NCBI GenBank assembly: GCA_951812755.1
Contig: OX638329.1
Span: forward strand, 4,720,522 to 4,784,521
From: an uncultured Latescibacterota bacterium
GTDB taxonomy: Bacteria > Latescibacterota > UBA2968
Length of the DNA: 64,000 nt
Direction of reading: 5' to 3'
The position numbers and the translations under genes were made by a program. Under the pieces are notes generated by a model. It made no database searches. It had not been told where the DNA came from and saw nothing but the letters and a program-made list of their open reading frames with translations. The stretch's first letter is position 1. Each line of letters opens with the position of its first letter. This document shows positions 53,334 through 64,000 of the stretch, one piece after another.

Positions 53334-54575
53334 ATGACTGAGATATACGACATGATCATTGTTGGCGCAGGACCGGCAGGTGCGACAGCGGCGTTATATG
53401 CCCATCGCGCGGGACTCAATGTCTGTCTGGTAGATAAGGCGCGATTTCCGCGGGATAAAATCTGTGGCGACGCGCTATCGGGCAAAGTCGTGTCGATTTT
53501 GTATGAACTCGATTTGTTCGACCAGGTGGCCCGATTGCCTGGCGCGACCATTCGAGAAGTCGTATTTGGCAGCCCGAATCATGTGGATGCGCGTGTAGAT
53601 TTGCGACGGTATGACCACCGGGATCAGGCCACGGGTAAAATACTGCCAATGGAAGGGTTTGTGATTCGGCGCGAAGTACTGGATAATTTTCTCTTCCAGG
53701 AAGCGAAAAAAGTTGCGAACACCTGTTATGAGGAATTTGCCGTTAAAGACCTGATACGAGAAAACGAGCAAATTGTAGGTGTGCGCGGCGTAGTAGATGG
53801 CAGAGAACGAGAAATACAGGCTCGCGTCGTGCTCGGCTGCGATGGTTTTAATTCAATGGTCGCGCGCAAAGCGGGATTGTACGCCCATGAATCTGTGCAT
53901 TGGGTCGTGGCAATTCGGCGTTACTACGAAAATGTGGCGGAATTGGGGGATCAAATCGAGTTGCATTTTGTAGATGAAGTCTTACCGGGTTATTTCTGGA
54001 TTTTTCCACTGGAAAATGGGACGGCAAATGTGGGCATTGGCATGCGTCACGATGTATTAAAAAAGCGGCGTGTGGATCTGAAAGTAGCATTGAACGAAGT
54101 AATCAGTCGCTCGCCTTATGCTCATCGGTTCAAAAATGCGCGTCCAACCGAAGACCCGGTGGGATGGAATTTGCCAGTGGGAAGTACCCGTCGAAAAAGT
54201 TATGGGAATGGCGTATTGCTTTTGGGCGATGCCGCGGGATTGATCGACCCCTTTACGGGCGAGGGAATTGGCAATGCGTTGTATTCCGCGCGTTTTGCCG
54301 TAGATGCCGTCCAAGAAGCCATTGCCGCAGATGACTATTCAGGAACTTTTTTTAAGCGATACGAAGACCGATTATGGGATGCAATAGGCGATGAATTGGC
54401 GACCAGCACGCGAATGCAAAAAATGGGACAATGGCGTCCCCTTCTCAATTTTACCATCCACAAAGCCGCACACAACGACAAAGTGCGCGATCTAATCTGC
54501 GGCATGATGGCCAATGCCGTCCCCAAAAAACAACTCACCAACCCGCTATTCTATTTGAAGCTATTGTTTAGTTGA
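53334..54575 (+). CDS. Geranylgeranyl reductase family FAD-dependent oxidoreductase
   Basis: 413 residues. FAD-binding Rossmann motif MIIVGAGPAGATAALYAHRA at 7-26, DKARFPRDKICGDALSGKVV with the Cys-Gly-Asp typical of the family, and the second FAD motif LLGDAAGLIDPFTGEGIGNA. Family members reduce isoprenoid double bonds in lipids, quinones or chlorophyll, or halogenate/hydroxylate aromatic substrates. No isoprenoid genes are adjacent, so the substrate stays open. GAGGGGAGT precedes the ATG. The last 60 residues have an amphipathic run (FTIHKAAHNDKVRDLI) that may contact the membrane. Confidence 0.88.
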   Translation: MTEIYDMIIVGAGPAGATAALYAHRAGLNVCLVDKARFPRDKICGDALSGKVVSILYELDLFDQVARLPGATIREVVFGSPNHVDARVDLRRYDHRDQATGKILPMEGFVIRREVLDNFLFQEAKKVANTCYEEFAVKDLIRENEQIVGVRGVVDGREREIQARVVLGCDGFNSMVARKAGLYAHESVHWVVAIRRYYENVAELGDQIELHFVDEVLPGYFWIFPLENGTANVGIGMRHDVLKKRRVDLKVALNEVISRSPYAHRFKNARPTEDPVGWNLPVGSTRRKSYGNGVLLLGDAAGLIDPFTGEGIGNALYSARFAVDAVQEAIAADDYSGTFFKRYEDRLWDAIGDELATSTRMQKMGQWRPLLNFTIHKAAHNDKVRDLICGMMANAVPKKQLTNPLFYLKLLFS

Positions 54576-54635
54576 ACCATTCGCATGAATCTTTCACATA
54601 AGTTTATTGACTGATTTACGCATAGACACAATATA

Positions 54636-54770
54636 ATGGACCTGTCATTTTGAGCGGAGCGCAGCGGAGTCGAAAAATCTACTACCAACGTAGGTGGAAT
54701 AGATGCTTCGGCTCCGTTCCACTCCGCTCAGCATGACAAAAAACCCAGACCTGCGTAACATCAGTTATTG
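54636..54770. repeat. Dispersed repeat R1, copy e
   Basis: Starts GGACCTGTCATTTTGAGCGG, contains GCAGCGGAGTCGAAAAATCT and GATGCTTCGGCTCCGTTCCA, and ends CAGACCTGCGTAACATCAG. It is very close to copy b at 14558 but lacks that copy's extra arm segment. It forms an imperfect palindrome between GAGCGGAGC and GCTCAGCATGAC. Confidence 0.75.
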
Positions 54771-54771
54771 A

Positions 54772-54945
54772 TTTAAACCACTGGACTCCGGCCTGCGCCG
54801 GAGTGACGAAGACGGGTGTCATTGCGGCATGGTTTTAGCCGCCACGCCGCACGCCGTAGGCATGGCGTAGCCACACCACAACGCCAGTAATCCAGTAGTT
54901 TTGGTTGTCATTGCGGCATGATTTTAGCCGCAATCCAGTCTGAAG
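54772..54945. repeat. Cluster of R2 and related REP-like hairpins
   Basis: CTGGACTCCGGC/GCCGGAGTGACG forms one hairpin. Two inverse-orientation R2 copies follow, GTCATTGCGGCATGGTTTTA near 54818 and GTCATTGCGGCATGATTTTA near 54907, the second closing with GCCGCAATCCAG. In between is a GC-rich stretch with small palindromes. Together with copy e of R1 this accounts for most of the gap 54576-55014; the last 70 bases before the CARF gene show no clear promoter. Confidence 0.65.
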
Positions 54946-55014
54946 CAAGCCCGGATGTAAGAACAACAAATATTAGCTAATTTTTTTCAAATACCACTCA
55001 TACCCTAAAAGACC

Positions 55015-56529
55015 ATGAAAAGAATTTTAATATGCTGGATCGGCAACACAGACTTACAAGCCTCTGAAGGGGTAGATGTAGGTGCAGGGCCTATCGCCCA
55101 GGCACTGGACACGCGCGAATTTGATGAGATCTTTCTCATCTCAGATTATGAAGATACCCGCGTAAAGCCTTATCTCAACTGGATAAAAAAAAGAACTTCA
55201 ACACCACACAAACTATTTTATCGACAACTTTCAAGCCCCACCCACTTTGGAGAAATTTACGAGATTGCCGCAAGCGTCTGCCAAGAAGCATTGGATCAAT
55301 ATGGCGATCAAACAGAACTGACCTTTCACCTTAGCCCCGGCACACCGGCAATGGCCGCGATATGGATCATTTTGGCGAAAACGCGCTTTCCCGCTGAATT
55401 GATTGAGTCATCAAGAGCGTACGGCGTTCAAACCGCCTCTGTTCCCTTTGATATTTCTGCTGAATTTTTGCCTACCCTCCTGCAAAAACCCGATGCGCAA
55501 CTCCGCTCATTGAGCGAAGAAAAACCTACAGAATCAGCGAATTTTGAAAACATAATATACAGGAGTCCAGCCATAGCGCGTGTGGTCGAAAAAGCGAAGC
55601 GCGCTGCCGTGCGAGATATCCCTGTCTTATTCGAAGGAGAATCTGGCACGGGAAAAGAACTCTTTGCACGCGCCATTCACCAGAACAGCCCGCGAAAAGA
55701 GGGGCCGTTTATCGCTGTAAACTGCGGTGCAATTCATCCCAACCTTGTGGAATCTGAACTATTCGGGCACAAAAAAGGCGCATTCTCAAATGCCCATGAA
55801 GATCGCAAAGGCCATTTTGAAGAGGCAGATGGTGGTACTATCTTTTTAGACGAAATTGGTGAATTGCCCAAAGATATGCAGGTGAGACTATTGCGTGTCT
55901 TACAAGAAAAAGAAGTCGTGCGACTCGGTGAATCCAAACCCAGAAAAGTAGATGTACGCATTGTTGCGGCGACAAATCGAACTCTCATAGAGGAAGTTAG
56001 TGAAGGACGGTTCCGCGAAGACCTGTTCTATCGGCTTGTAGTAGCCTATCTCAAGTTGCCCCCACTGCGCGAACGCACGGGAGATATGGGACTGTTGATT
56101 AACCATTCGCTCGAACTGATCAACCAGGAGAATGAAGCCCAGCCCGGCTACAAATATAAAAAAATTTCTATCGGGGCAAGAAATCTTATTCTCAATTACC
56201 ATTGGCCCGGCAATATACGCGAGTTACAAAACACGCTCAGACGCGCGATGGTATGGACAGACGGAGAAACTCTTACAAAACAAGACATTGAAGAAGCCCT
56301 CTTACCCGCGTTTGGGAAACGAGACGAAGATATCCTGAATCGCCCCCTTGACACAGACTTTAGCCTGCCCGATCTAATTGATGAAGTTGCAAAACACTAT
56401 CTTAATCGCGCTCTGAAAGAATCTAAAACAAAAAAAGAAGCCGCAGAACTCGTGGGCCTACCCAGTTACCAGACCCTCACCAACTGGGCAAAAAAGCACG
56501 GCGTAGCAATTGATAACAAAAGAAAATAG
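55015..56529 (+). CDS. CARF-domain sigma54-dependent activator (RtcR-like architecture)
   Basis: 504 residues, three parts. (1) Residues 1-165: CARF-like sensor with an ILICWIGNTDLQA start, GAGPIAQALDTREFDEIFLI and FHLSPGTPAMAAIWIILAKT, as in RtcR and CRISPR ancillary CARF proteins. (2) Residues 180-410: sigma54-activator AAA+ ATPase with Walker A GESGTGKE (208-215), Walker B GGTIFLDE (273-280) and PGNIRELQN; the sigma54-contact loop reads GAFSNA (255-260), not GAFTGA. (3) A C-terminal helix-turn-helix (450-490, KKEAAELVGLPSYQTLTNWA). No signal peptide. A -24/-12 promoter lies 25 bases downstream of its stop, so the ATPase module is the probable target. Confidence 0.87.
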   Translation: MKRILICWIGNTDLQASEGVDVGAGPIAQALDTREFDEIFLISDYEDTRVKPYLNWIKKRTSTPHKLFYRQLSSPTHFGEIYEIAASVCQEALDQYGDQTELTFHLSPGTPAMAAIWIILAKTRFPAELIESSRAYGVQTASVPFDISAEFLPTLLQKPDAQLRSLSEEKPTESANFENIIYRSPAIARVVEKAKRAAVRDIPVLFEGESGTGKELFARAIHQNSPRKEGPFIAVNCGAIHPNLVESELFGHKKGAFSNAHEDRKGHFEEADGGTIFLDEIGELPKDMQVRLLRVLQEKEVVRLGESKPRKVDVRIVAATNRTLIEEVSEGRFREDLFYRLVVAYLKLPPLRERTGDMGLLINHSLELINQENEAQPGYKYKKISIGARNLILNYHWPGNIRELQNTLRRAMVWTDGETLTKQDIEEALLPAFGKRDEDILNRPLDTDFSLPDLIDEVAKHYLNRALKESKTKKEAAELVGLPSYQTLTNWAKKHGVAIDNKRK

Positions 56530-56553
56530 AAAAATATCAAATTTTAGCGTGTA

Positions 56554-56571
56554 TTGGCACGAAATATGCTT
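56554..56571 (+). promoter_or_regulatory. Predicted sigma54 (-24/-12) promoter
   Basis: TTGGCACGAAATATGCTT. GG at 56556-56557 and GC at 56568-56569 are separated by exactly 10 bases, and the site matches the sigma54 consensus (TTGGCACG-N4-TTGCT) except for one base. Transcription would start near 56581. It lies between the sigma54-activator gene and the ATPase gene on the same strand, about 180 bases before the ATPase start, as in activator-operon pairs such as rtcR-rtcBA. I found no second such site before the second module. Confidence 0.75.
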
Positions 56572-56700
56572 AAACAATCAGCGTGACATCAATGCGGACT
56601 CCCGACACCTGAAAGAATTTCTTGAAAAAGCTGCTGTCTTAGTGAAAAAATTAGTATCCTGACCATTCCAAATCGTAGAAAGTTTGGATATTCCAAAATT

Positions 56701-56758
56701 TGTCAACCTCAAGCGTTTCAGACAAACCTGAACGTTTCTTTCAACTTGTGAGAAATTC
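56701..56758 (+). repeat. Duplicated leader directly upstream of the first ATPase gene
   Basis: TGTCAACCTCAAGCGTTTCA, GACAAACCTGAACG and CAACTTGTGAGAAAT precede the ATG. The same blocks with a few changes precede the second ATPase gene at 59440-59495. The conservation of non-coding sequence shows that the duplication unit included the leader, and possibly that it has a function such as translational control. Confidence 0.6.
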
Positions 56759-58420
56759 ATGGCCATTACATCTATCACCATTGAAAATTTCAAGGGCATC
56801 GGCGATGCCGTGACCATTCCCATTCGCCCCATCACCTTGTTATTTGGCAAAAACAGCGCGGGCAAGTCAACAGTATTGCAGGCATTACGCTATCTGCGCG
56901 AAATATGCGGTGACTTGAATCAAAAGTTGGAAGCATCGCACGATGGCGTATACGAACAATTGAAGGCACTCCACATTGTATGCGGCTATTCCGACGGTCT
57001 CAAATATCGCGAAGTTCTGAATTCCATACCAATACATAAATTAGAAAAAATATCAAATGCTGATCTATCTAACCCTGGCTCTCGCCCCAGCGAAGTTCTA
57101 CAATCTATACAAAAACTAATTGAAGATACTGATTTGTCAGAATCAAAAGACGAGGAGAAATTTCAAGCAGAAGCAGAAGCATGGGAACATGGAGAAACCT
57201 ATCCAGGTCGCTATACTGATTTGGGCGATTTTCCTTCCCTGGTGCATGGCCATGAGTTTGATCGGAAGATTCGAATTCGCCTTGAATTTGATATAAAACC
57301 CGAACAAGCGAAAAGATTGAATCGTATTTTGAGTCTTGCAATAATACCGGAGGACATGGTGGACCTACAGTCCGCGGGGATAGAAATAGTAACAGGTTGG
57401 GACGAAAAACAGCGGATTGTTTATCTCGATTCATACAAGTATGCTTTAAACGGCGCAGAATGGATTTGTATCACCCCGGAGAACAAACCCGATGAAGCAA
57501 ATGTAAGACGTTCTAGTGATCTCAAAATATATTCACATCCTATCATCCAAGCAATCAAGCTCGGCCTGAGTGAAAGCGAATTGCTGACAGAATACCTCTC
57601 TTGGCTTCTCGATACTAATGCGGGTTTAGATAAAAATGCATTGACGGATTTAAGGCTCGGTTTCGAGGAGGGTGTGCTCAGATCGTTGGTGGAGGATGTA
57701 ATCATAGAAGTGCATGGCATTGTAATCGAAGAATTGCCTGACATACGGCATTTAGGTCCTGTGCGAGATGTGCTCCCTCGCCATCATAACTCACCGCTCT
57801 CAATGTTTAATTCCGCTGTATCGAGATGGGCAATGGGGTTAGAGGCTTGGGATGCGCTTGCACAAAACCCTCAATTAGTCGAAAAAACAAACTACTATAT
57901 GAAAAATGTTTTGAAACTCGGATATAGCATCAGGCTATTTGAAGACAGTGAACAGAGAATTCAACTTTATGACGAAACTCATAATATATACCTTCATCCA
58001 TTAGATGTTGGTTTTGGCATCTCTCAGGTTATTCCAGTTTTGGTGGGTGCGTTAGACGACAGCCAGAGCCCTGGAGTTTTTGCAATTGAACAACCAGAGC
58101 TTCACATTCACCCTGCCCTGCAAGTCGCTTTGGGCGATGTGTTCATTGATGGCATAAAAAACGGTAATCGCACCATGCTCATTGAAACGCATTCTGAGCA
58201 CTTGTTACTGAGAATTATGAGGCGGATGCGTGAGACTTTTGAAGATAGGATTGAAGAAAATCGGTACCCTGTAACTCCCGCTGATATTGCCGTACTATTC
58301 GTCGAATGGCATGATTCGCAAACAATCATACGAGAAATGCCTGTGAATGAACGTGGAGATTTGGTAAAAGCCTGGCCGGGTGGTTTTTTTGAGGAAGGTA
58401 TAGAAGAGGTATTTGCTTAA
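56759..58420 (+). CDS. AAA/SMC-like ATPase, DUF3696 family (module 1)
   Basis: 553-residue cytosolic ATPase of the OLD/RecF-like class. Walker A is FGKNSAGKST (29-38); IRHLGPVRD marks the central conserved site; PLDVGFGISQVIPVLVGAL is the signature-like helix; FAIEQPELHIHPALQ (about 441-455) is Walker B; IETHSEHLLLR carries the switch His. A DUF3696-like C-terminus (IAVLFVEW...AWPGGFFEEG) follows and there is no TOPRIM domain. The middle 250 residues form a divergent coiled or helical insert. Its TAA overlaps the next ATG (TAATG). Homologues occur in defence loci. A paralogue lies at 59496. Confidence 0.88.
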   Translation: MAITSITIENFKGIGDAVTIPIRPITLLFGKNSAGKSTVLQALRYLREICGDLNQKLEASHDGVYEQLKALHIVCGYSDGLKYREVLNSIPIHKLEKISNADLSNPGSRPSEVLQSIQKLIEDTDLSESKDEEKFQAEAEAWEHGETYPGRYTDLGDFPSLVHGHEFDRKIRIRLEFDIKPEQAKRLNRILSLAIIPEDMVDLQSAGIEIVTGWDEKQRIVYLDSYKYALNGAEWICITPENKPDEANVRRSSDLKIYSHPIIQAIKLGLSESELLTEYLSWLLDTNAGLDKNALTDLRLGFEEGVLRSLVEDVIIEVHGIVIEELPDIRHLGPVRDVLPRHHNSPLSMFNSAVSRWAMGLEAWDALAQNPQLVEKTNYYMKNVLKLGYSIRLFEDSEQRIQLYDETHNIYLHPLDVGFGISQVIPVLVGALDDSQSPGVFAIEQPELHIHPALQVALGDVFIDGIKNGNRTMLIETHSEHLLLRIMRRMRETFEDRIEENRYPVTPADIAVLFVEWHDSQTIIREMPVNERGDLVKAWPGGFFEEGIEEVFA

Positions 58421-59372
58421 TGGCTTTATTTTCTGAGTATACTGTAACACCTGATGTGTTTAATGAGAGTTGTTATGATTCACAGGCATTATGTGACGCA
58501 TATTTTAGACAATTGCTGGAAGTTTTTTTAGTGAGGGTCTCGTTCGAAATCTTCGCAATGGCGAATGGCAAGAGTTCTTTTCAACCCATGCAAGACCCTG
58601 GCACGACCGTACAAAGCATATTTTGAAAAATTTGACAGATGCTGGTCGCTTAGTACCAAGTGATCCAGCATTAAGTCATACACCTCAGACGGATCGTGAA
58701 TGGTGCAACGAGGCGTTGGAGTCACATGAAACCATACCTTTGAATGGCATTATAGTAAGCGATGCCATTCGAAGTACCTATCGCAGAAATCAGTTGGTTG
58801 AAAGTGTAAGCAGACTATCACAATCTACCTGCGAGTGGTGGGAACCCACAAATAGCTCGCTTCGATTAGAACGTACTATCAGTCAGTATATAGACGCTCT
58901 TACGCTGATTCTCAAACATGCGAAATCCATTATGTTTATAGACCCCAATATTGATCCAGCAAAGAGCAACTATGCTAATTTTGTACAATTGCTTGAAGCA
59001 ATAGGTAATAGACCATCACAATCACCCCAGCCACTCGTTGAGATACACCGCAAAAGTCTTCGCGGCTCTGGGAAAAATGCTCCCTTATGGGATCAACAAG
59101 ATATGGAGAATACATTTCGAGACGAATTTGGCTCAGTTCTTTCGCAGTCAAACTTAAAAGCAGAAGTCTTTATCTGGGACGATTTTCATGATCGTTATCT
59201 GATCAGCAATTTAGGCGGAATACTGGTCCCCTATGGATTTGACACGTCAAGCAAGCCTGATGACTTAACAACATGGTCACGCCTTGGACGATCGGACCGA
59301 GATGATGTACAGCGCGAATTTGCTCGCGAGAGTAATAAACACAAATTGCATTTTAATTTTACGATACCGTAA
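58420..59372 (+). CDS. PLD-like/HDRY-motif protein of module 1, needing a -1 frameshift
   Basis: Frame 0 from the ATG at 58420 gives MALFSEYTVTPDVFNESCYD through EVFL, then non-conserved residues to a stop at 58626. Shifting -1 at the T TTT TTA heptamer (58524-58530) continues SEGLVRNLRNGEWQEFFSTH, then RPWHDRTKHILKNLTDAGRL and on to 59372. The joined product has 317 residues, near the 327 of the module-2 partner. The C-terminal part has IMFIDPNIDP and FHDRYLISNLGGILVPYGFD, paralleling IHFLDRYFS and FHNRYVLSNHCGVIAGYGTD of the partner, a PLD-like (MITD1-type) pattern. Alternatively it is a pseudogene or an assembly homopolymer error. Confidence 0.7.
58524..58530 (+). other. Candidate -1 ribosomal frameshift heptamer
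   Basis: T TTT TTA in the zero frame (codons TTT and TTA after a T), inside a run of seven T. This is the X XXY YYZ form and the same heptamer used by HIV-1 gag-pol. Slippage by -1 joins the two halves of the gene exactly. A Shine-Dalgarno-like GTGAGGGT lies just downstream; I see no strong pseudoknot by eye. Confidence 0.45.
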
Positions 59373-59439
59373 AATCGAGACTCGTACTTTTTAATTTCAC
59401 TACTGCCCCGGCTTTACAGGGCAACATTGATTGGTATTT

Positions 59440-59495
59440 TGTCAATCTCAAGCTTTCGGACAAACCTGAATGCTTTTAACAACTTGTGAGAAATC
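59440..59495 (+). repeat. Duplicated leader directly upstream of the second ATPase gene
   Basis: TGTCAATCTCAAGC, GGACAAACCTGAATG and CAACTTGTGAGAAAT match the leader of the first ATPase gene. Similarity continues into the coding region to about codon 47. No sigma54-type promoter is visible in the 123-base gap, so this module probably depends on read-through from the first. Confidence 0.6.
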
Positions 59496-61196
59496 ATGGC
59501 TATTACATCTATCACCATTGAAAATTTTAAAGGCATTGGTGATGCTGTGACCATCCCCATTCGCCCCATCACCTTGTTATTTGGCAAAAACAGCGCGGGC
59601 AAGTCAACAGTATTGCAGGCACTGCGCTATCTACGCCAAATATGCAAATGCAAAGATCTGAAATTTGAAGAAAAGTCAGAGGCCCTAAGGGAACGCGAAA
59701 AACGCAAAGGTTTGAAATCTGCACCAAAGTTGCAAGAACTGTACGAGCTACACGACATGTTGAAGGCCGCGCACTTTCTATATCTACACGACCAATTTGA
59801 TTATCGCAAAATTTCAAAATCTGTACAAACAAGAATATCAAATATATCAGATGCTGATCTACCTGACTTTGACTCGATACGTCAAGAGGCTCTAAATGCC
59901 TTAAAAAAAATAATCGAATATCGAACTGATTTCGAATCAGAATATGAAGAAGATGACTGGCCTCAAGAAGATGATTGGAGGCAGGGAGGAATCGATCCAG
60001 ACCACTTTACTGAGTTACCCAGTTTTTTCTCTTTGATGCATCGTCATGAGTTGGATCGAAAAATACGGATTCGCCTTGAATTTGACATAGAACCCGAAAA
60101 ATTGGAAAGTTTGAATGGCATTTTGAGCCTTGCGATGAAACCGGAGTGTGTGACGAATCCGAAGTCCGCGTGGATAGAAATGGTAATAGGCTGGGACGAA
60201 CAGCAAAAAGTTGCTTATCTCAATTCATACAAGTATGCTCTGAATGGCACAGAATGGATTTGTCTCACACCGGTGAAAAGGCCAATGCCCAATGATGCAG
60301 AATGGAATTATGAAGAGAGGTGTATAGATCTAAACATCTATTCAAAGAATTTCGGTCTGAGTAACCGGATGAAAGACCTCTCCTGGCTTCTCGGCACTGA
60401 TAACAGTGAGGGTAAAAAATTCGGTCTGAATGAAAGTAAGTTAAAAAATATAAGACCCTGGTTGGAAAAGTGCGTATTCGAAGATAGAGCAACGAATATA
60501 CTGAAAAAATTGCACAACATTGTGCTTGGAGAGCTAGATGGCCTGCGACATTTAGGGCCAGTGCGCGATATTCGACCATCATACAGTAACGCTTGGACAA
60601 TGGGGGAAGCGGCATGGGCCGCACTTAAACAAGACCCTCAATTGCTAAAAAAGACAAACCGCTATATGAAAAAGTTAGCACTTGGATACAGCATCAGGCA
60701 ATCTGAAGATGACGAACAGGAGATTCAACTTTATGATGAAACCCATAAGATATACCTTCATCGCTTAGATGTTGGTTTTGGCATCTCTCAAGTCATTCCA
60801 GTTGTGGTCGGTGTGTTGGATAACACATCTCAGATTTTCGCAGTTGAACAACCCGAACTCCACCTGCATCCTGCCGCTCAAGTGGCTTTGGGCGATGTGT
60901 TCATTAATGGAATAAAAAACAGCAATCGCACCATGCTCATTGAAACGCATTCTGAACACTTGCTGTTGCGATTGCTGCGGCGTGTGCGTGAAACAACCCG
61001 TCGTAATAGACGCCGCCAGACCACCGAGTTAGAACAAACAGCCCACGAATTAACACCCAATGACCTTTCTGTGGTCTATGTTCGACCAACGCCAGCAGGC
61101 GTAAAATTCACGCCACTTACTGTAACGGATAACGGCGATTTTGATGCACCCTGGCCAGAAGGATTCTTTGATGAGCGCGATTCGGAGTTGTTTTAA
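59496..61196 (+). CDS. AAA/SMC-like ATPase, DUF3696 family (module 2)
   Basis: 566-residue paralogue of the gene at 56759. The first 47 residues are nearly identical (Walker A FGKNSAGKST), the next 300 have drifted, and the C-terminal half is similar again: RHLGPVRDI, RLDVGFGISQVIPVVVGVL, FAVEQPELHLHPAAQVALGD (Walker B), LIETHSEHLLLRLLRRVRE. The extreme C-terminus, ELTPNDLSVVYVRPTPAGVK and FDAPWPEGFFDERDSELF, is the clearest DUF3696 end. All ATPase residues are intact. The partner gene begins two bases after the stop, so the pair is translated together. Confidence 0.9.
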   Translation: MAITSITIENFKGIGDAVTIPIRPITLLFGKNSAGKSTVLQALRYLRQICKCKDLKFEEKSEALREREKRKGLKSAPKLQELYELHDMLKAAHFLYLHDQFDYRKISKSVQTRISNISDADLPDFDSIRQEALNALKKIIEYRTDFESEYEEDDWPQEDDWRQGGIDPDHFTELPSFFSLMHRHELDRKIRIRLEFDIEPEKLESLNGILSLAMKPECVTNPKSAWIEMVIGWDEQQKVAYLNSYKYALNGTEWICLTPVKRPMPNDAEWNYEERCIDLNIYSKNFGLSNRMKDLSWLLGTDNSEGKKFGLNESKLKNIRPWLEKCVFEDRATNILKKLHNIVLGELDGLRHLGPVRDIRPSYSNAWTMGEAAWAALKQDPQLLKKTNRYMKKLALGYSIRQSEDDEQEIQLYDETHKIYLHRLDVGFGISQVIPVVVGVLDNTSQIFAVEQPELHLHPAAQVALGDVFINGIKNSNRTMLIETHSEHLLLRLLRRVRETTRRNRRRQTTELEQTAHELTPNDLSVVYVRPTPAGVKFTPLTVTDNGDFDAPWPEGFFDERDSELF

Positions 61197-61198
61197 TT

Positions 61199-62182
61199 AT
61201 GCTGAAGATTTTTGCTATTGATCCCAAAACATGTCAAACCCTGGAGTGGTTTCGATATTGCACGGAGCACTGTCAGCCATCACAGGGACGTGCAATTGCA
61301 GATTTGCCGTATAACCAATGGTATGAAAATGCGTTTGCGATTATTCAAGACCTTAAACTCTTCCCTCTGGAAGAAAAAAGCTTGAAAAGGCGTCTGGATC
61401 TGGTGCGAGCACAACTGGTACATCGTCCAGGAACTGCTTGGACAAATTGGTACTATGATGATTTTTCACAATTTTCCTGGATTACCGAAATAGAGAAAGA
61501 GCATCAGCGAGAGCGTTTTTCTGCTGTCATCAGCCCTGATTACGCGGGGGCTGACGACACGGATCTAAAGTACCATCCCGATGAACTCAATAGAACTGTA
61601 GAAGCGTGGAATATACCCAGTGGCGTTTCAATTACGCGCAGCCCTGGAGAATTTGTAAATGCCATTCTGCCAATGCTTCGGGTCGCTTCGAATATTCACT
61701 TTTTAGATCGATATTTCAGTGTAGATGCTAACAGTTCTCATACCCAAAATTACAAGCAGATGATCCAGGATTTGGCCTCCTATTGTGATCCCTTTCCATC
61801 GCTGATAATCCATTGCTGTTCAGATGAAAATGAGACGCCTGATTCAGGTTACTTTAAAAATGAACTGAACAAGCACTACGCGCCCTTAATACCAACAGGG
61901 AAATCTGTAAGGGTTCTTTTGTGGCAGATAGAGCAAGATGCAAGAATAGAAAGAGGTGCTCATCCCTTTCACAATCGCTATGTGCTATCTAATCATTGCG
62001 GTGTCATTGCAGGATATGGTACGGATAGTGCAAAAACACCGACTGATGCACCAGATGTCCTTCAGATTGTTGACCATAAAATATATTTGGAATTGTGGAA
62101 CCAAATTCGGGATGAGACATTTCCGATGATCCATATTGAGGAGGAAAATAAATTTATGATTAACGGCACCAAAAGTGCGTGA
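61199..62182 (+). CDS. PLD-like/HNRY-motif partner protein (module 2)
   Basis: 327 residues, intact. It begins MLKIFAIDPKTCQTLEWFRY; the central part has YHPDELNRTVEAWNIPSGVS and the C-terminal part NIHFLDRYFS, VRVLLWQIEQDARIERGAHP and FHNRYVLSNHCGVIAGYGTD. The H(N/D)RY-(V/L)-(L/I)-S/T-x-x-G-G/C pattern and FLDRY strand suggest the PLD-like fold of MITD1-type proteins; the classical HxK is not complete, so nuclease activity is uncertain. It is paired with a DUF3696 ATPase, as its counterpart is in module 1. I infer an effector or nucleic-acid-binding subunit. Confidence 0.65.
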   Translation: MLKIFAIDPKTCQTLEWFRYCTEHCQPSQGRAIADLPYNQWYENAFAIIQDLKLFPLEEKSLKRRLDLVRAQLVHRPGTAWTNWYYDDFSQFSWITEIEKEHQRERFSAVISPDYAGADDTDLKYHPDELNRTVEAWNIPSGVSITRSPGEFVNAILPMLRVASNIHFLDRYFSVDANSSHTQNYKQMIQDLASYCDPFPSLIIHCCSDENETPDSGYFKNELNKHYAPLIPTGKSVRVLLWQIEQDARIERGAHPFHNRYVLSNHCGVIAGYGTDSAKTPTDAPDVLQIVDHKIYLELWNQIRDETFPMIHIEEENKFMINGTKSA

Positions 62183-62241
62183 TTAACGATGTATAATACG
62201 ATATGAAATTAAGACTTGTCACGAACAATGGGCTGCAAGTG

Positions 62242-62310
62242 TTCGAGGCAAGTCAAAGGTGTTACATGCACTGCGCTATTACCACGCAATTTGTAATAAC
62301 GAATTGTGGA
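62242..62310 (+). pseudogene. Fossil of a third ATPase copy (Walker A region)
   Basis: GAGGCAAGTCAAAGGTGTTA, CATGCACTGCGCTATTACCA and CGCAATTTGTAATAACG align with the Walker A region of both ATPase genes, translating to RGKSKVLHALRYYHAICN against AGKSTVLQALRYLRQICK. Frame and flanks are lost. The surrounding gap 62183-62367 holds nothing else recognisable. Confidence 0.65.
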
Positions 62311-62367
62311 CTTGCCCCCGAGGAGGCTCATAGTTAGATTCAATGGTGATTCCCAAGAGGATGAGAC

Positions 62368-63030
62368 ATGAGCGATAACTACCACAACTATCAGTTGCTA
62401 TTGGCAAAAGCCGCCCAACTTTACGAGAGGCATGGGAACCGCAGGGGGAAATATATGAGCGATTTAAAGGAACTTTGTCTGGAGGATAACCACTTTGTTC
62501 TTATCCATGATTTGAGAGATGCTATGCGTGAAGTGGAGACAGAATTGCGAAAGAAAATGTGGGACGAAATAGAATCTGAGCTAAAATCGGAAATTCAATA
62601 CTTTCCCGATAAAAAACGCTCATATAAAAAGGGTAATAAGGGCCTATGCTACCAGTTGAGTGAATCCACCTCGCTCGAGGTTGTAGGCGACTCCGCCATC
62701 TGGTTCGGGGTCCGTTGTTCCAAAAAGAAGTATAAAGACAAATATGACACGCTCAAAAATGCACTGGTGGATGTGAGTGGTGAAAAACCAGACGATGATT
62801 ATCCTTGGTGGCAGAAGGTCGATAGACTGGAGGACCTCTCGCTGCTATTGAAAGATGCAGAGCGGCAGAAATATGCAAAAAAAACCGCACGGGAAATCAT
62901 CGCAAAAGGCTTGAAGGAGCTTTTGGAAGTCCTCGAAGATATTGCTCTGGTGAATGCAATCAAAGAAGGAGAAAAAACAGAGCTTGTCCCCGAAGAAGAG
63001 ATATTCGAGATATTAGAAAGGCTATCTTGA
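62368..63030 (+). CDS. Hypothetical protein: PDDEXK_4-like fragment with antitoxin-like tail
   Basis: 220 residues, Lys/Glu-rich. Residues 1-165 (KGLCYQLSESTSLEVVGDSA, IWFGVRC, then WWQKVDRLEDLSLL) resemble the distal half of PD-(D/E)XK nuclease family 4, without an obvious catalytic D...ExK. Residues 175-220 (IIAKGLKELLEVLEDIALVN and EGEKTELVPEEEIFEILERL) read like the C-terminal tail of RelB/Phd-type antitoxins, and the next gene, three bases on, is a RelE-like toxin. So it may be a chimera in which an antitoxin lost its DNA-binding head. Both identifications are from memory. Confidence 0.55.
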   Translation: MSDNYHNYQLLLAKAAQLYERHGNRRGKYMSDLKELCLEDNHFVLIHDLRDAMREVETELRKKMWDEIESELKSEIQYFPDKKRSYKKGNKGLCYQLSESTSLEVVGDSAIWFGVRCSKKKYKDKYDTLKNALVDVSGEKPDDDYPWWQKVDRLEDLSLLLKDAERQKYAKKTAREIIAKGLKELLEVLEDIALVNAIKEGEKTELVPEEEIFEILERLS

Positions 63031-63033
63031 ATT

Positions 63034-63267
63034 TTGAAAGTCTTATTCAGAAACAGTTTTGGAAGAGACCTCAGACGTATCCGAAATCGATCTATTGGAG
63101 AGCGCGTCAAGGAAGCGACAGAGCAAGTCAAGGAAGCAAGCGATCTTACAGAGATCAGTGATGTCCGAAAACTCCGTGGCGATAGGATTGGATTTCAACT
63201 CAACGAGGGCACCGTAATTTTCGTACGATGTTTGCCGCGCCGAGATTTTTACCAACACTTTCCCTGA
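63034..63267 (+). CDS. RelE/ParE-type toxin with internal deletion
   Basis: 77 residues starting at TTG 63034: VLFRNSFGRDLRRIRNRSIG, ERVKEATEQVKEASDLTEIS, DVRKLRGD, then RIGFQLNEGTVIFVRCLPRR and DFYQHFP. The family's usual course is KLKG-x3-YYRIRVGDYRIG-...-VIFVRFLHR; here KLRGD goes directly to RIGF, so about ten residues including a beta-strand and a conserved Arg are missing in frame. The toxin may therefore be attenuated or dead. It is co-translated with the chimeric gene before it. Confidence 0.72.
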   Translation: MKVLFRNSFGRDLRRIRNRSIGERVKEATEQVKEASDLTEISDVRKLRGDRIGFQLNEGTVIFVRCLPRRDFYQHFP

Positions 63268-63410
63268 CCACCTCGCCTACCAAATGCTCAAGTTCCTCCT
63301 GCATCTATTGCCCGCATCCGTCCCCTCTACACAAATCCCCACTTCCACTGCTCAATCCATAATCGCCTTTTATCTGCGTTCATCTGCGTTCATGCTCGAA
63401 TTACTCGCCT

Positions 63411-64000
63411 TCATTCTGCGGACCCAAACGCCTTTTGCAAATACCCCAAATCGAGTTCGGGATAAACCGGGAATCGCGCGAGGAGATTACCGATCCTCTG
63501 TTGGGCGTATTCGAGCACACCATCCTGGATTCTGTACTGGACCTTGCTAAATTGCCCCGCGCTTCTGCCCCTCGTGAACTTCAATGGCCGTGCCTGGGTA
63601 AGCACATTGCCCATGACCGCGCCGATCTCCTGCATCTCCTCTGCCCCCATACCAAGCGTCGTAAGCGCCGGTGTCCCCACCCTGAGACCACTGGTGTACC
63701 ATGGCCCATTGGGATCAAAGGGAATAGTATTCTTATTCAGTGTAATCCCGGCATCGCGAAGCAGGGTCTCGGCCTGACGACCCGTGAGATTAAAAGGCGT
63801 AACATCAATCTGTAGCAAATGATTGTCCGTTCCCCCTGTGAGAACCGTAAGCCCCGCGTCCATACACGCCTGTGCGAGCACCTGGGCATTATCGACAATT
63901 CTGGCGGCATACGCTTGAAACTCGGGCGTACTCGCTTCCTGAAACGCGACAGCTTTGGCAGCCATCACATGGGGCAAAGGACCCCCGAGCACCATCGGGC
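63411..64000 (-). CDS. glyA: Serine hydroxymethyltransferase, N-terminus beyond window
   Basis: C-terminal 196 or so residues of GlyA, the PLP enzyme that interconverts serine and glycine with tetrahydrofolate. It shows GGPLPHVMAAKAVAFQEAST, GGTDNHLLQIDV, RQAETLLRDAGITLNKNTIP and LRVGTPALTTLGMGAEEM, all in the usual order; the PLP lysine lies before the window edge. The open frame continues past 64000. The stop is at 63411. The gap 63268-63410 on its 3' side has a short ATCTGCGTTC direct repeat and no gene. Confidence 0.92.
   Translation of the reverse strand, partial: PMVLGGPLPHVMAAKAVAFQEASTPEFQAYAARIVDNAQVLAQACMDAGLTVLTGGTDNHLLQIDVTPFNLTGRQAETLLRDAGITLNKNTIPFDPNGPWYTSGLRVGTPALTTLGMGAEEMQEIGAVMGNVLTQARPLKFTRGRSAGQFSKVQYRIQDGVLEYAQQRIGNLLARFPVYPELDLGYLQKAFGSAE

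What the first reader, a model, noticed from the sequence alone, without database searches (positions are those of the whole stretch)
55015..62182. Candidate inducible system: CARF-sigma54 activator driving tandem ATPase/PLD-like modules
Directly visible: a CARF-like plus AAA+ activator gene, a -24/-12 promoter 25 bases after it, and two ATPase plus HDRY/HNRY-protein modules on the same strand. Known: in RtcR the CARF-type domain senses an RNA-derived ligand and switches on rtcBA through sigma54; CARF domains elsewhere bind cyclic oligonucleotides made during phage attack. Inference: this locus is a ligand-triggered defence or RNA-damage response in which the effector is not RtcBA but a DUF3696 ATPase with a PLD-like partner. 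I do not know a described system with this layout.
Basis: partly seen in the sequence, partly recalled or inferred. Interest (0 to 1): 0.9.

Follow-up and report, generated by a model that had tools for sequence, protein, structure and literature searches.

The report
Self-contained CARF-sigma54 switch for defence operons
A bacterial sensor gene appears to carry its own on-switch, a binding site inside its coding sequence and a promoter at its end, and to drive interchangeable anti-phage gene sets, here two pairs of an ATPase and a nuclease-like protein.

Summary
55015-56529 encodes a CARF + sigma54-activator protein (PADLOC RtcR_PspF2, E 5.9e-198); its predicted N-terminal fold is CARF (Z 18.3 to Csm6). 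A -24/-12 promoter starts 26 nt after the stop, then two OLD/AriA-like ATPase + PLD-like modules follow. The first PLD gene really starts at 58420 and is frame-broken here. The triad recurs in several phyla, often as activator > HsdR-M-S > ATPase > PLD; the window has an RM-less form. Two features go beyond the finding. (1) In 57 of 74 related loci a sigma54-type site follows the activator gene, in 50 of these within 4 nt of the stop codon. (2) Some 350 nt before the gene end lies a dyad, TTTCT-N9-AGAAA, kept at synonymous sites (38 of 53 genes; shuffles average 2.4); the window copy is exact. I read it as an enhancer inside the activator gene: a portable sensor-enhancer-promoter cassette with swappable defence cargo, here on an 8.8-kb island missing from 6 of 6 same-genus genomes without the activator. 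RtcR-like activators heading defence operons are in print (Makarova 2014, Bell 2024): a new variant of a known kind. Ligand, DNA binding and defence are inferred.

The parts
55015..56529 (+). CARF + sigma54-interacting AAA+ + HTH activator (RtcR_PspF2 family)
   Evidence: PADLOC E 5.9e-198; Pfam Sigma54_activat E 1.4e-70; CARF fold Z 18.3
55015..55524 (+). CARF sensor domain (residues 1-170), conserved LTFHLSPGTPAMAA segment
   Evidence: alignments A1 and A6, model, fold searches
56165..56183 (+). intragenic dyad TTTCTATCGGGGCAAGAAA (TTTCT-N9-AGAAA), proposed enhancer inside the activator ORF
   Evidence: synonymous-site conservation; position-specific recurrence; only exact match in the window, 0.11 expected
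56555..56569 (+). -24/-12 (sigma54-type) promoter TGGCACGAAATATGC
   Evidence: a like site after 57 of 74 related activator genes
56759..58420 (+). ATPase 1 (ABC/OLD/AriA type, weak DUF3696 C-terminus, no Toprim hit)
58420..59372 (+). PLD-like gene 1 (HDRY type); start overlaps the ATPase stop; frame broken at 58523-58529 in this genome, intact copies in relatives
59496..61196 (+). ATPase 2
61199..62182 (+). PLD-like gene 2 (HNRY type; R147, D170, H205, H258, R260, G268, G274 invariant or nearly so)
   Evidence: alignments A2 and A5; model pLDDT 83.9; PLD-like folds, best Z 10.0
54576..63410 (.). variable island between a conserved FAD oxidoreductase gene (53334-54575) and an SHMT-like gene (63411-63998, minus strand; name recalled, not from a search)
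   Evidence: the two flanking genes lie next to each other, without the island, in 6 of 6 same-genus genomes lacking the activator

Best explanation
A self-contained ligand-inducible defence operon. The CARF domain, proposed to bind a small RNA-derived ligand (cyclic oligonucleotide favoured over tRNA ends), releases the AAA+ ring. The HTH is proposed to bind the TTTCT-N9-AGAAA dyad inside the activator's own coding sequence, so that the activator remodels sigma54 polymerase at the -24/-12 promoter just behind its stop codon. This transcribes the cargo in cis: here two ATPase + PLD-like modules, in many relatives a type I R-M operon that ends in the same ATPase + PLD pair. The ATPase probably acts as an OLD/AriA-like sensor or scaffold that gates a PLD-like nuclease. 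Shown by sequence: gene identities, the predicted CARF and PLD-like folds, recurrent gene order, the promoter position, DNA-level constraint on the dyad, the empty site. Inferred: binding of the HTH to the dyad, enhancer function, ligand, nuclease activity, phage defence.
For: CARF fold Z 18.3 to Csm6. Sigma54 factor in the genome, E 4e-59. Promoter score >= 13.5 within 300 nt of the stop in 57 of 74 loci, against 1 of 74 with one shuffle each, 0 of 74 on the reverse strand, 1 of 74 upstream; 50 of the 57 at +1 to +4. Dyad with at most 1 mismatch at 340-400 nt before the gene end in 53 of 70 genes, 22 exact; 3 elsewhere in the same genes; 0.046 per kb in 1042 kb of flanks. Synonymous shuffles: 38 of 53 pruned genes observed, shuffle mean 2.4, largest 8 in 500. 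GCA at codon 388 in 48 of 53 genes (16% of Ala codons elsewhere in them); ATT or CTT at 384 and AGA or AAA at 389 keep most of the DNA motif while the residue changes. Loci not used to find the motif: dyad in 6 of 10, promoter in 7 of 10. Cargo: Hsd-like genes in 32, ATPase in 20, PLD in 16 of 48 loci with at least 8 kb downstream. PLD and activator co-occur among 64 genomes of the phylum, Fisher p 2.9e-5. Empty site in 6 of 6. No RtcB in 8 of 8.
Against: The promoter alone is at chance in this window, and the orthologue of G008 (L023) has none. Promoter and dyad are not significantly associated across loci (Fisher p 0.28). Only one dyad per gene was found, whereas activators of this class usually use two or more sites (recalled). 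17 of 70 genes lack the dyad within one mismatch, and 4 of 10 in the independent set. The PLD-like fold match is moderate, and non-nuclease folds score as high (PssA 10.0, TrmB 9.3, MITD1 8.6); the HKD lysine is arginine. Cas10 was found in 4 of 8 activator-bearing genomes only. PLD-family genes occur without the activator in 3 of 9 genomes and on Methylocella and Deinococcus plasmids; in G040 the complete PLD hit lies on another contig than the activator. The first PLD gene is broken in this genome. First-cargo type is clustered on the activator tree, so cargo is not freely shuffled.
Confidence: 0.66

Rival explanations
1. [quoted passage not shown]
For: RtcR, a CARF-AAA-HTH protein, binds such fragments (PMC7790460, abstract and passages); Bell 2024 extends this ligand to defence-linked RtcR homologues. 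No Cas10 was found in 4 of 8 activator-bearing genomes.
Against: No RtcB match in 8 of 8 genomes. Pfam RtcR (PF06956) has no match in the window's genome. Closest folds are Csm6 CARF domains, with weak PADLOC hits to CARF-nuclease models including Csx1/Csm6 (E 6e-14 to 0.02); Makarova 2014 calls RtcR's CARF divergent.
Confidence: 0.3
2. The intragenic dyad is not an enhancer but another nucleotide-level signal: rare-codon pausing, an RNA hairpin, an internal promoter or an autoregulatory site.
For: Only one dyad per gene; no significant association with promoter presence (Fisher p 0.28); AGA and GCA are minority codons in these genes.
Against: ATT/CTT and AGA/AAA alternation keeps the DNA while changing the residue, which pausing does not predict; no Rfam family at gathering threshold in 54570-63420.
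Confidence: 0.25
3. Mere co-residence in a defence island: the ATPase + PLD modules work on their own and the activator controls something else or nothing.
For: ATPase + PLD pairs exist without the activator; L023 lacks a recognisable promoter.
Against: Co-directional order with the promoter at the activator's stop codon in loci from several phyla; co-occurrence p 2.9e-5 in the phylum; first-cargo class changes repeatedly on the activator tree (12 on the quick tree) while most loci keep the promoter.
Confidence: 0.12

Closest known systems
RtcR (sigma54 activator of rtcBA)
   Same: CARF + AAA+ + HTH order; sigma54-dependent; CARF domain restrains the AAA+ domain until ligand binds (PMC7790460, passages)
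   Different: No RtcB match in 8 of 8 genomes; cargo co-directional behind the activator; promoter at the activator's stop codon; dyad in the ORF; defence-type cargo
RtcR-like CARF-AAA-HTH proteins linked to R-M systems (Makarova 2014) and RtcR homologues heading CoCoNuT superoperons (Bell 2024)
   Same: Same protein class upstream of co-directional defence genes; Bell 2024 already predicts binding of an upstream activating sequence and lists HsdR/M/S and PLD among ancillary genes. Rhodoferax and Polaromonas plasmid loci show VWA, PP2C, kinase and AAA genes behind the activator, with DUF2357 annotated in Rhodoferax
   Different: The passages I read do not mention a promoter at the activator's stop codon, an enhancer inside its ORF, or the ATPase + PLD pair; here the pair is the main cargo, without R-M or CoCoNuT genes
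PARIS AriA, Gabija GajA, OLD ATPases
   Same: ABC-type ATPase with AAA_15/AAA_21 matches; ATPase plus separate effector as in PARIS (recalled)
   Different: No Toprim hit; partner is a PLD-like protein; best PADLOC models are PDC-M55A, NsnB and HEC-03B
PLD-family nucleases (Nuc, BfiI, SauUSI)
   Same: PLD-like fold of residues 141-322, Z 7.8 to 9.5 to these; one HKD-like motif
   Different: H-x-R instead of H-x-K, N/D/E in place of the D (motif recalled); extra N-terminal part; activity untested

Membership tests
CARF superfamily | Rossmann-like CARF fold | tested here: met
   Z 18.3 to Csm6, 14.4 VC1899, 12.7 Csa3
CARF superfamily | binds a cyclic oligonucleotide or RNA-derived ligand | not testable with these tools
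   conserved SPGTPxM segment only
RtcR_PspF2 (PADLOC CARF_AAA_HTH) | full-length match to the model | tested here: met
   E 5.9e-198, residues 2-497
RtcR, regulator of rtcBA | matches the RtcR models of Pfam and NCBIfam | tested here: not met
   PF06956 no match in the genome; NF038308 337.5 bits against a cut-off of 650
RtcR, regulator of rtcBA | genome encodes RtcB | tested here: not met
   no match in 8 of 8 genomes, the window's included
Sigma54 enhancer-binding protein | Sigma54 interaction domain, HTH, rpoN in the genome, -24/-12 promoter | tested here: met
   HTH only through the full-length PADLOC model, no separate Pfam HTH hit
Sigma54 enhancer-binding protein | binds an upstream enhancer | not testable with these tools
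   candidate dyad at 56165-56183
OLD/GajA | C-terminal Toprim nuclease domain | tested here: inconclusive
   no Toprim hit in Pfam; protein ends in a weak DUF3696 match; not folded
PARIS | AriA-type ATPase with an AriB partner | tested here: not met
   ATPases match AriA models, but the PLD-like ORFs match nothing in PADLOC at E <= 0.1 and the next gene matches PDC-S26
PLD superfamily | PLD fold | tested here: met
   best Z 10.0, residues 141-322; Foldseek probability 1.00 to PLD3 with TM about 0.3; moderate
PLD superfamily | canonical HxK(x)4D motif (recalled) | tested here: not met
   mostly H-x-R-(x)4-N/D/E in alignment A2
CoCoNuT superoperon | CoCoNuT genes downstream | tested here: inconclusive
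   no DUF2357 or McrB-like hit among the proteins scanned in Pfam; CoCoNuT models themselves were not run

The most novel reading that the evidence does not exclude
A portable, self-contained inducible expression cassette: one gene encodes a CARF sensor-activator, carries its own enhancer inside its coding sequence and ends in its own sigma54 promoter, so that whatever defence genes come to lie behind it fall under second-messenger control at transcription. In each of 8 genomes a dyad pattern hits the activator gene, and elsewhere only at about the rate of a reversed control (20 against 18 in all; the pattern was drawn from such genes).
Probability: 0.5. Interest if true: 0.85.

Novelty: new variant of a known kind. 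Interest (0 to 1): 0.72.

Why it matters
If true, CARF signalling is not only a direct switch on nucleases but a transcriptional one, packed into a single transferable gene with built-in enhancer and promoter. It would explain how costly restriction and nuclease modules stay off until infection, give a simple search rule (a sigma54 site at the stop codon of a CARF-AAA gene) for new defence cargo, and supply a compact inducible part. The ATPase + PLD pair at the end of many of these type I R-M operons found no description in my searches.

Tried and rejected
RtcBA regulation: rejected for these genomes (no RtcB match in 8 of 8; completeness 75-99%). Type III CRISPR as the general ligand source: not supported (Cas10 palm model in 4 of 8; the model also rings in the E. 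coli control, so weak hits such as that of G006, E 2.9e-6, are doubtful), though this genome has two GGDD proteins at 6.00-6.02 Mb (L127). Recent duplication of whole modules: rejected (PLD types 16-22% identical). A second synonymous peak at codons 184-192 was set aside as a likely serine-codon artefact. Profile searches of PDB sequences for PLD and CARF gave nothing usable. The genome pattern search had a wrong spacing and is not used; one search replaces it. Phage records matched neither query, one PLD protein and one CARF domain. For PDC-M55, NsnB and HEC-03, none of the 10 papers listed (of 19) looks relevant by title. For intragenic enhancers, one search returned no paper. Makarova 2020 (10.1093/nar/gkaa635) is not held, so its account of this family is unread. 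Passages of PMC7159879, PMC12839542 and PMC12458937 held nothing on this architecture.

Limits of the counts. The 80 loci are the best of 262 relatives, so counts lean towards close kin. 6 of 80 had no readable stop and were dropped. Four of the 74 left (L035, L090, L108, L109) have short, probably broken frames and count as misses there; they fall outside the 1400-1620 nt used for the dyad (70 genes). 53 of 69 genes were kept below 85% identity for the synonymous tests. The promoter weights and threshold were my own, set after the phylum loci had been seen. Hsd labels rest on BLAST to annotated type I subunits of three plasmids, so some HsdM-like genes may be other methyltransferases (L062 and relatives). 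The control with other activators scored 7 of 12 loci: six at 4-5 mismatches and L010, itself a distant CARF-like activator, at 3; five lacked the anchor motif. The tree is a quick one with 25 open forks.
Full report
Observation. The window is G000:C1:4720522-4784521 of a 6.53-Mb genome; its closest named relatives are MAGs labelled Latescibacterota or Gemmatimonadota. 55015-56529 is a CARF + sigma54-activator protein. A -24/-12 site lies at 56555-56569. Two ATPase + PLD-like modules follow to 62182 on the same strand. The promoter alone is not above chance in the window (1 found, 0.74 expected). The first PLD gene starts at 58420 and is frame-broken in a T run; intact copies exist in relatives.

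Fold tests. AlphaFold of the first 170 residues (32 sequences, pLDDT 87.6) matches CARF domains: Csm6 6tug_F Z 18.3, rmsd 2.0 over 139 aa; 8pe3 Z 16.7; VC1899 Z 14.4; Csa3 Z 12.7. PLD2 (22 sequences, pLDDT 83.9) matches PLD-like folds, mainly over residues 141-322: PssA 8yr5 and 3hsi Z 10.0, SauUSI 7clg 9.5, BfiI 8.1, Nuc 7.8, but also TrmB 9.3 and MITD1 8.6. These values are moderate and the fold does not prove a nuclease. D170 and H258 are invariant, R147, H205 and R260 nearly so: an HKD-like motif with R for K. The ATPases resemble AriA, OLD and GajA.

Co-occurrence in the phylum. A full-length RtcR_PspF2 hit (E <= 1e-135) occurs in 8 of 64 genomes. In 5 of these 8 loci, the window included, the ATPase + PLD pair follows; in a sixth (G040) the contig ends inside the ATPase; G037 has another cargo and G027 ends 476 nt after the gene. 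PLD-family hits occur in 9 of 64 genomes, 6 of them activator carriers (Fisher p 2.9e-5); in G040 the hit is on another contig.

Wider survey. A scan of genome contigs gave 262 relatives of the CARF domain, best 80 kept. Of 48 loci with at least 8 kb downstream, 32 carry Hsd-like genes, 20 the ATPase, 16 the PLD protein, 37 Hsd-like or ATPase. The order activator, HsdR, HsdM, HsdS, ATPase, PLD is seen for example in L051, L064, L068, L075 and L081; L043 and L061 have activator, ATPase, PLD directly, as in the window. Other cargo includes a QatA-like protein in L112 and a type IIG-like protein in L062 and a Fic protein in L096. On a quick activator tree the first-cargo class needs 12 changes, with 5 for the ATPase-first class forced by well-supported branches, yet it is clustered (shuffles average 19.5). 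On plasmids, Azotobacter and Vibrio show activator, type I R-M genes, ATPase and partner. The Azotobacter partner matches PLD2 at E 8e-7. The Vibrio partner matches PLD1 only at E 0.61 but the L049 member at E 1.4e-9; both were seeds of the family HMM, so their HMM hits are no independent test. Methylocella has R-M + ATPase + PLD behind a WYL gene instead; Deinococcus has the pair alone within 9 kb.

Promoter. Of 80 loci, 74 had a readable stop and at least 60 nt behind it. Score >= 13.5 within 300 nt: 57 of 74 after the gene, 1 of 74 in one shuffle each, 0 of 74 on the reverse strand, 1 of 74 upstream. In 50 of the 57 the TGGCAC starts 1-4 nt after the stop codon. In the phylum 7 of 8 activator loci have it; L023 does not.

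Intragenic dyad. A codon alignment of 53 genes under 85% identity shows one strong synonymous-conservation peak at about codons 383-391: xTT TCT nnn nnn GCA ARA AAn CTT, that is TTTCT-N9-AGAAA. Within one mismatch at 340-400 nt before the gene end: 53 of 70 genes (22 exact), against 3 elsewhere in those genes and 0.046 per kb in 1042 kb of flanks. Synonymous shuffling of the 53 genes gives mean 2.4, largest 8 in 500, against 38 observed; exact 17 against mean 0.19, largest 2. GCA is used at codon 388 in 48 of 53 genes although it is 16% of Ala codons elsewhere in them; ATT/CTT and AGA/AAA alternate, so the DNA is kept while the residue changes. Six other sigma54 activators have 4-5 mismatches there and a distant CARF-like one 3. 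In six plasmid and four viral-contig activators not used to find the motif, 6 of 10 have the dyad and 7 of 10 a promoter; two of the viral contigs are near-identical and lack both. A related pattern hits the activator gene in 8 of 8 genomes and 20 other places against 18 for the reversed control, so no other target stands out; the pattern was drawn from such genes. Against: promoter and dyad are not significantly associated across loci (p 0.28), and only one dyad is seen per gene.

Island. In 6 of 6 same-genus genomes without the activator, the flanking FAD oxidoreductase and SHMT-like genes are neighbours. In G008 the system has other flanking genes.

Mechanism and ligand. RtcR's CARF binds tRNA halves with 2',3'-cyclic phosphate (PMC7790460, abstract and passages). 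Here no RtcB was found in 8 of 8 genomes, the Pfam RtcR family does not match in the window's genome and the CARF fold is Csm6-like; I favour a cyclic oligonucleotide but cannot show it. This genome has two Cas10-like GGDD proteins, but 4 of 8 carriers showed no Cas10 hit.

Literature. Makarova 2014 (PMC4012209, passages) reports RtcR-like CARF-AAA-HTH proteins often associated with R-M systems. Bell 2024 (PMC11090510, passages and section 11 part 1 of 2) places RtcR homologues at the head of CoCoNuT superoperons, predicts activation through an upstream activating sequence, and lists HsdR/M/S and PLD among ancillary genes. So the idea of RtcR-like control of defence operons is not new. My searches listed no paper that I recognised as describing the stop-codon promoter, the intragenic dyad or the ATPase + PLD pair; I saw listings for most, passages for a few, and Makarova 2020 was not held.

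Noticed in passing
window 62368-63270: PDC-S26-like gene (PADLOC E 5.5e-13) followed by a RelE/ParE-like ORF (resemblance recalled) at about 63031-63270; in G010 the PDC-S26-like gene is longer, 404 aa, with a like ORF behind it.
   Followed up: partly
L023, L025, L027, downstream of the activator: Short hydrophobic ORFs of 23-24 aa with a good ribosome-binding site (for example MRKWLPIAIQVVIVVIDTLSKKRR in L025), behind the sigma54 site in L025 and L027; possible small membrane peptides.
   Followed up: no
L127 4562-6181 and 15341-17782 (G000 about 6.00-6.02 Mb): Two Cas10-like proteins with GGDD, one with an HD-like motif, in a type III CRISPR-like region.
   Followed up: partly
L123-L126: Activator genes on four IMG/VR viral contigs; five cargo proteins of two of these contigs match no Pfam family.
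   Followed up: partly
L122: Methylocella plasmid: WYL gene, HsdR-M-S, ATPase, PLD, SIR2: the same cargo under a different kind of regulator.
   Followed up: no
window 56759-56902 and 59496-59639: First 144 nt of the two ATPase genes 133/144 identical while the rest diverges, as if homogenised.
   Followed up: no
L022 3971-5314; L026 5492-7006: The first PLD gene of G006 is split, with a 447-aa ORF between its pieces; the activator gene of G010 has an in-frame TAG.
   Followed up: no
window 54576-55014: Intergenic stretch with a repeated GTCATTGCGGCATGRTTTTAGCCGC-like sequence upstream of the activator.
   Followed up: no
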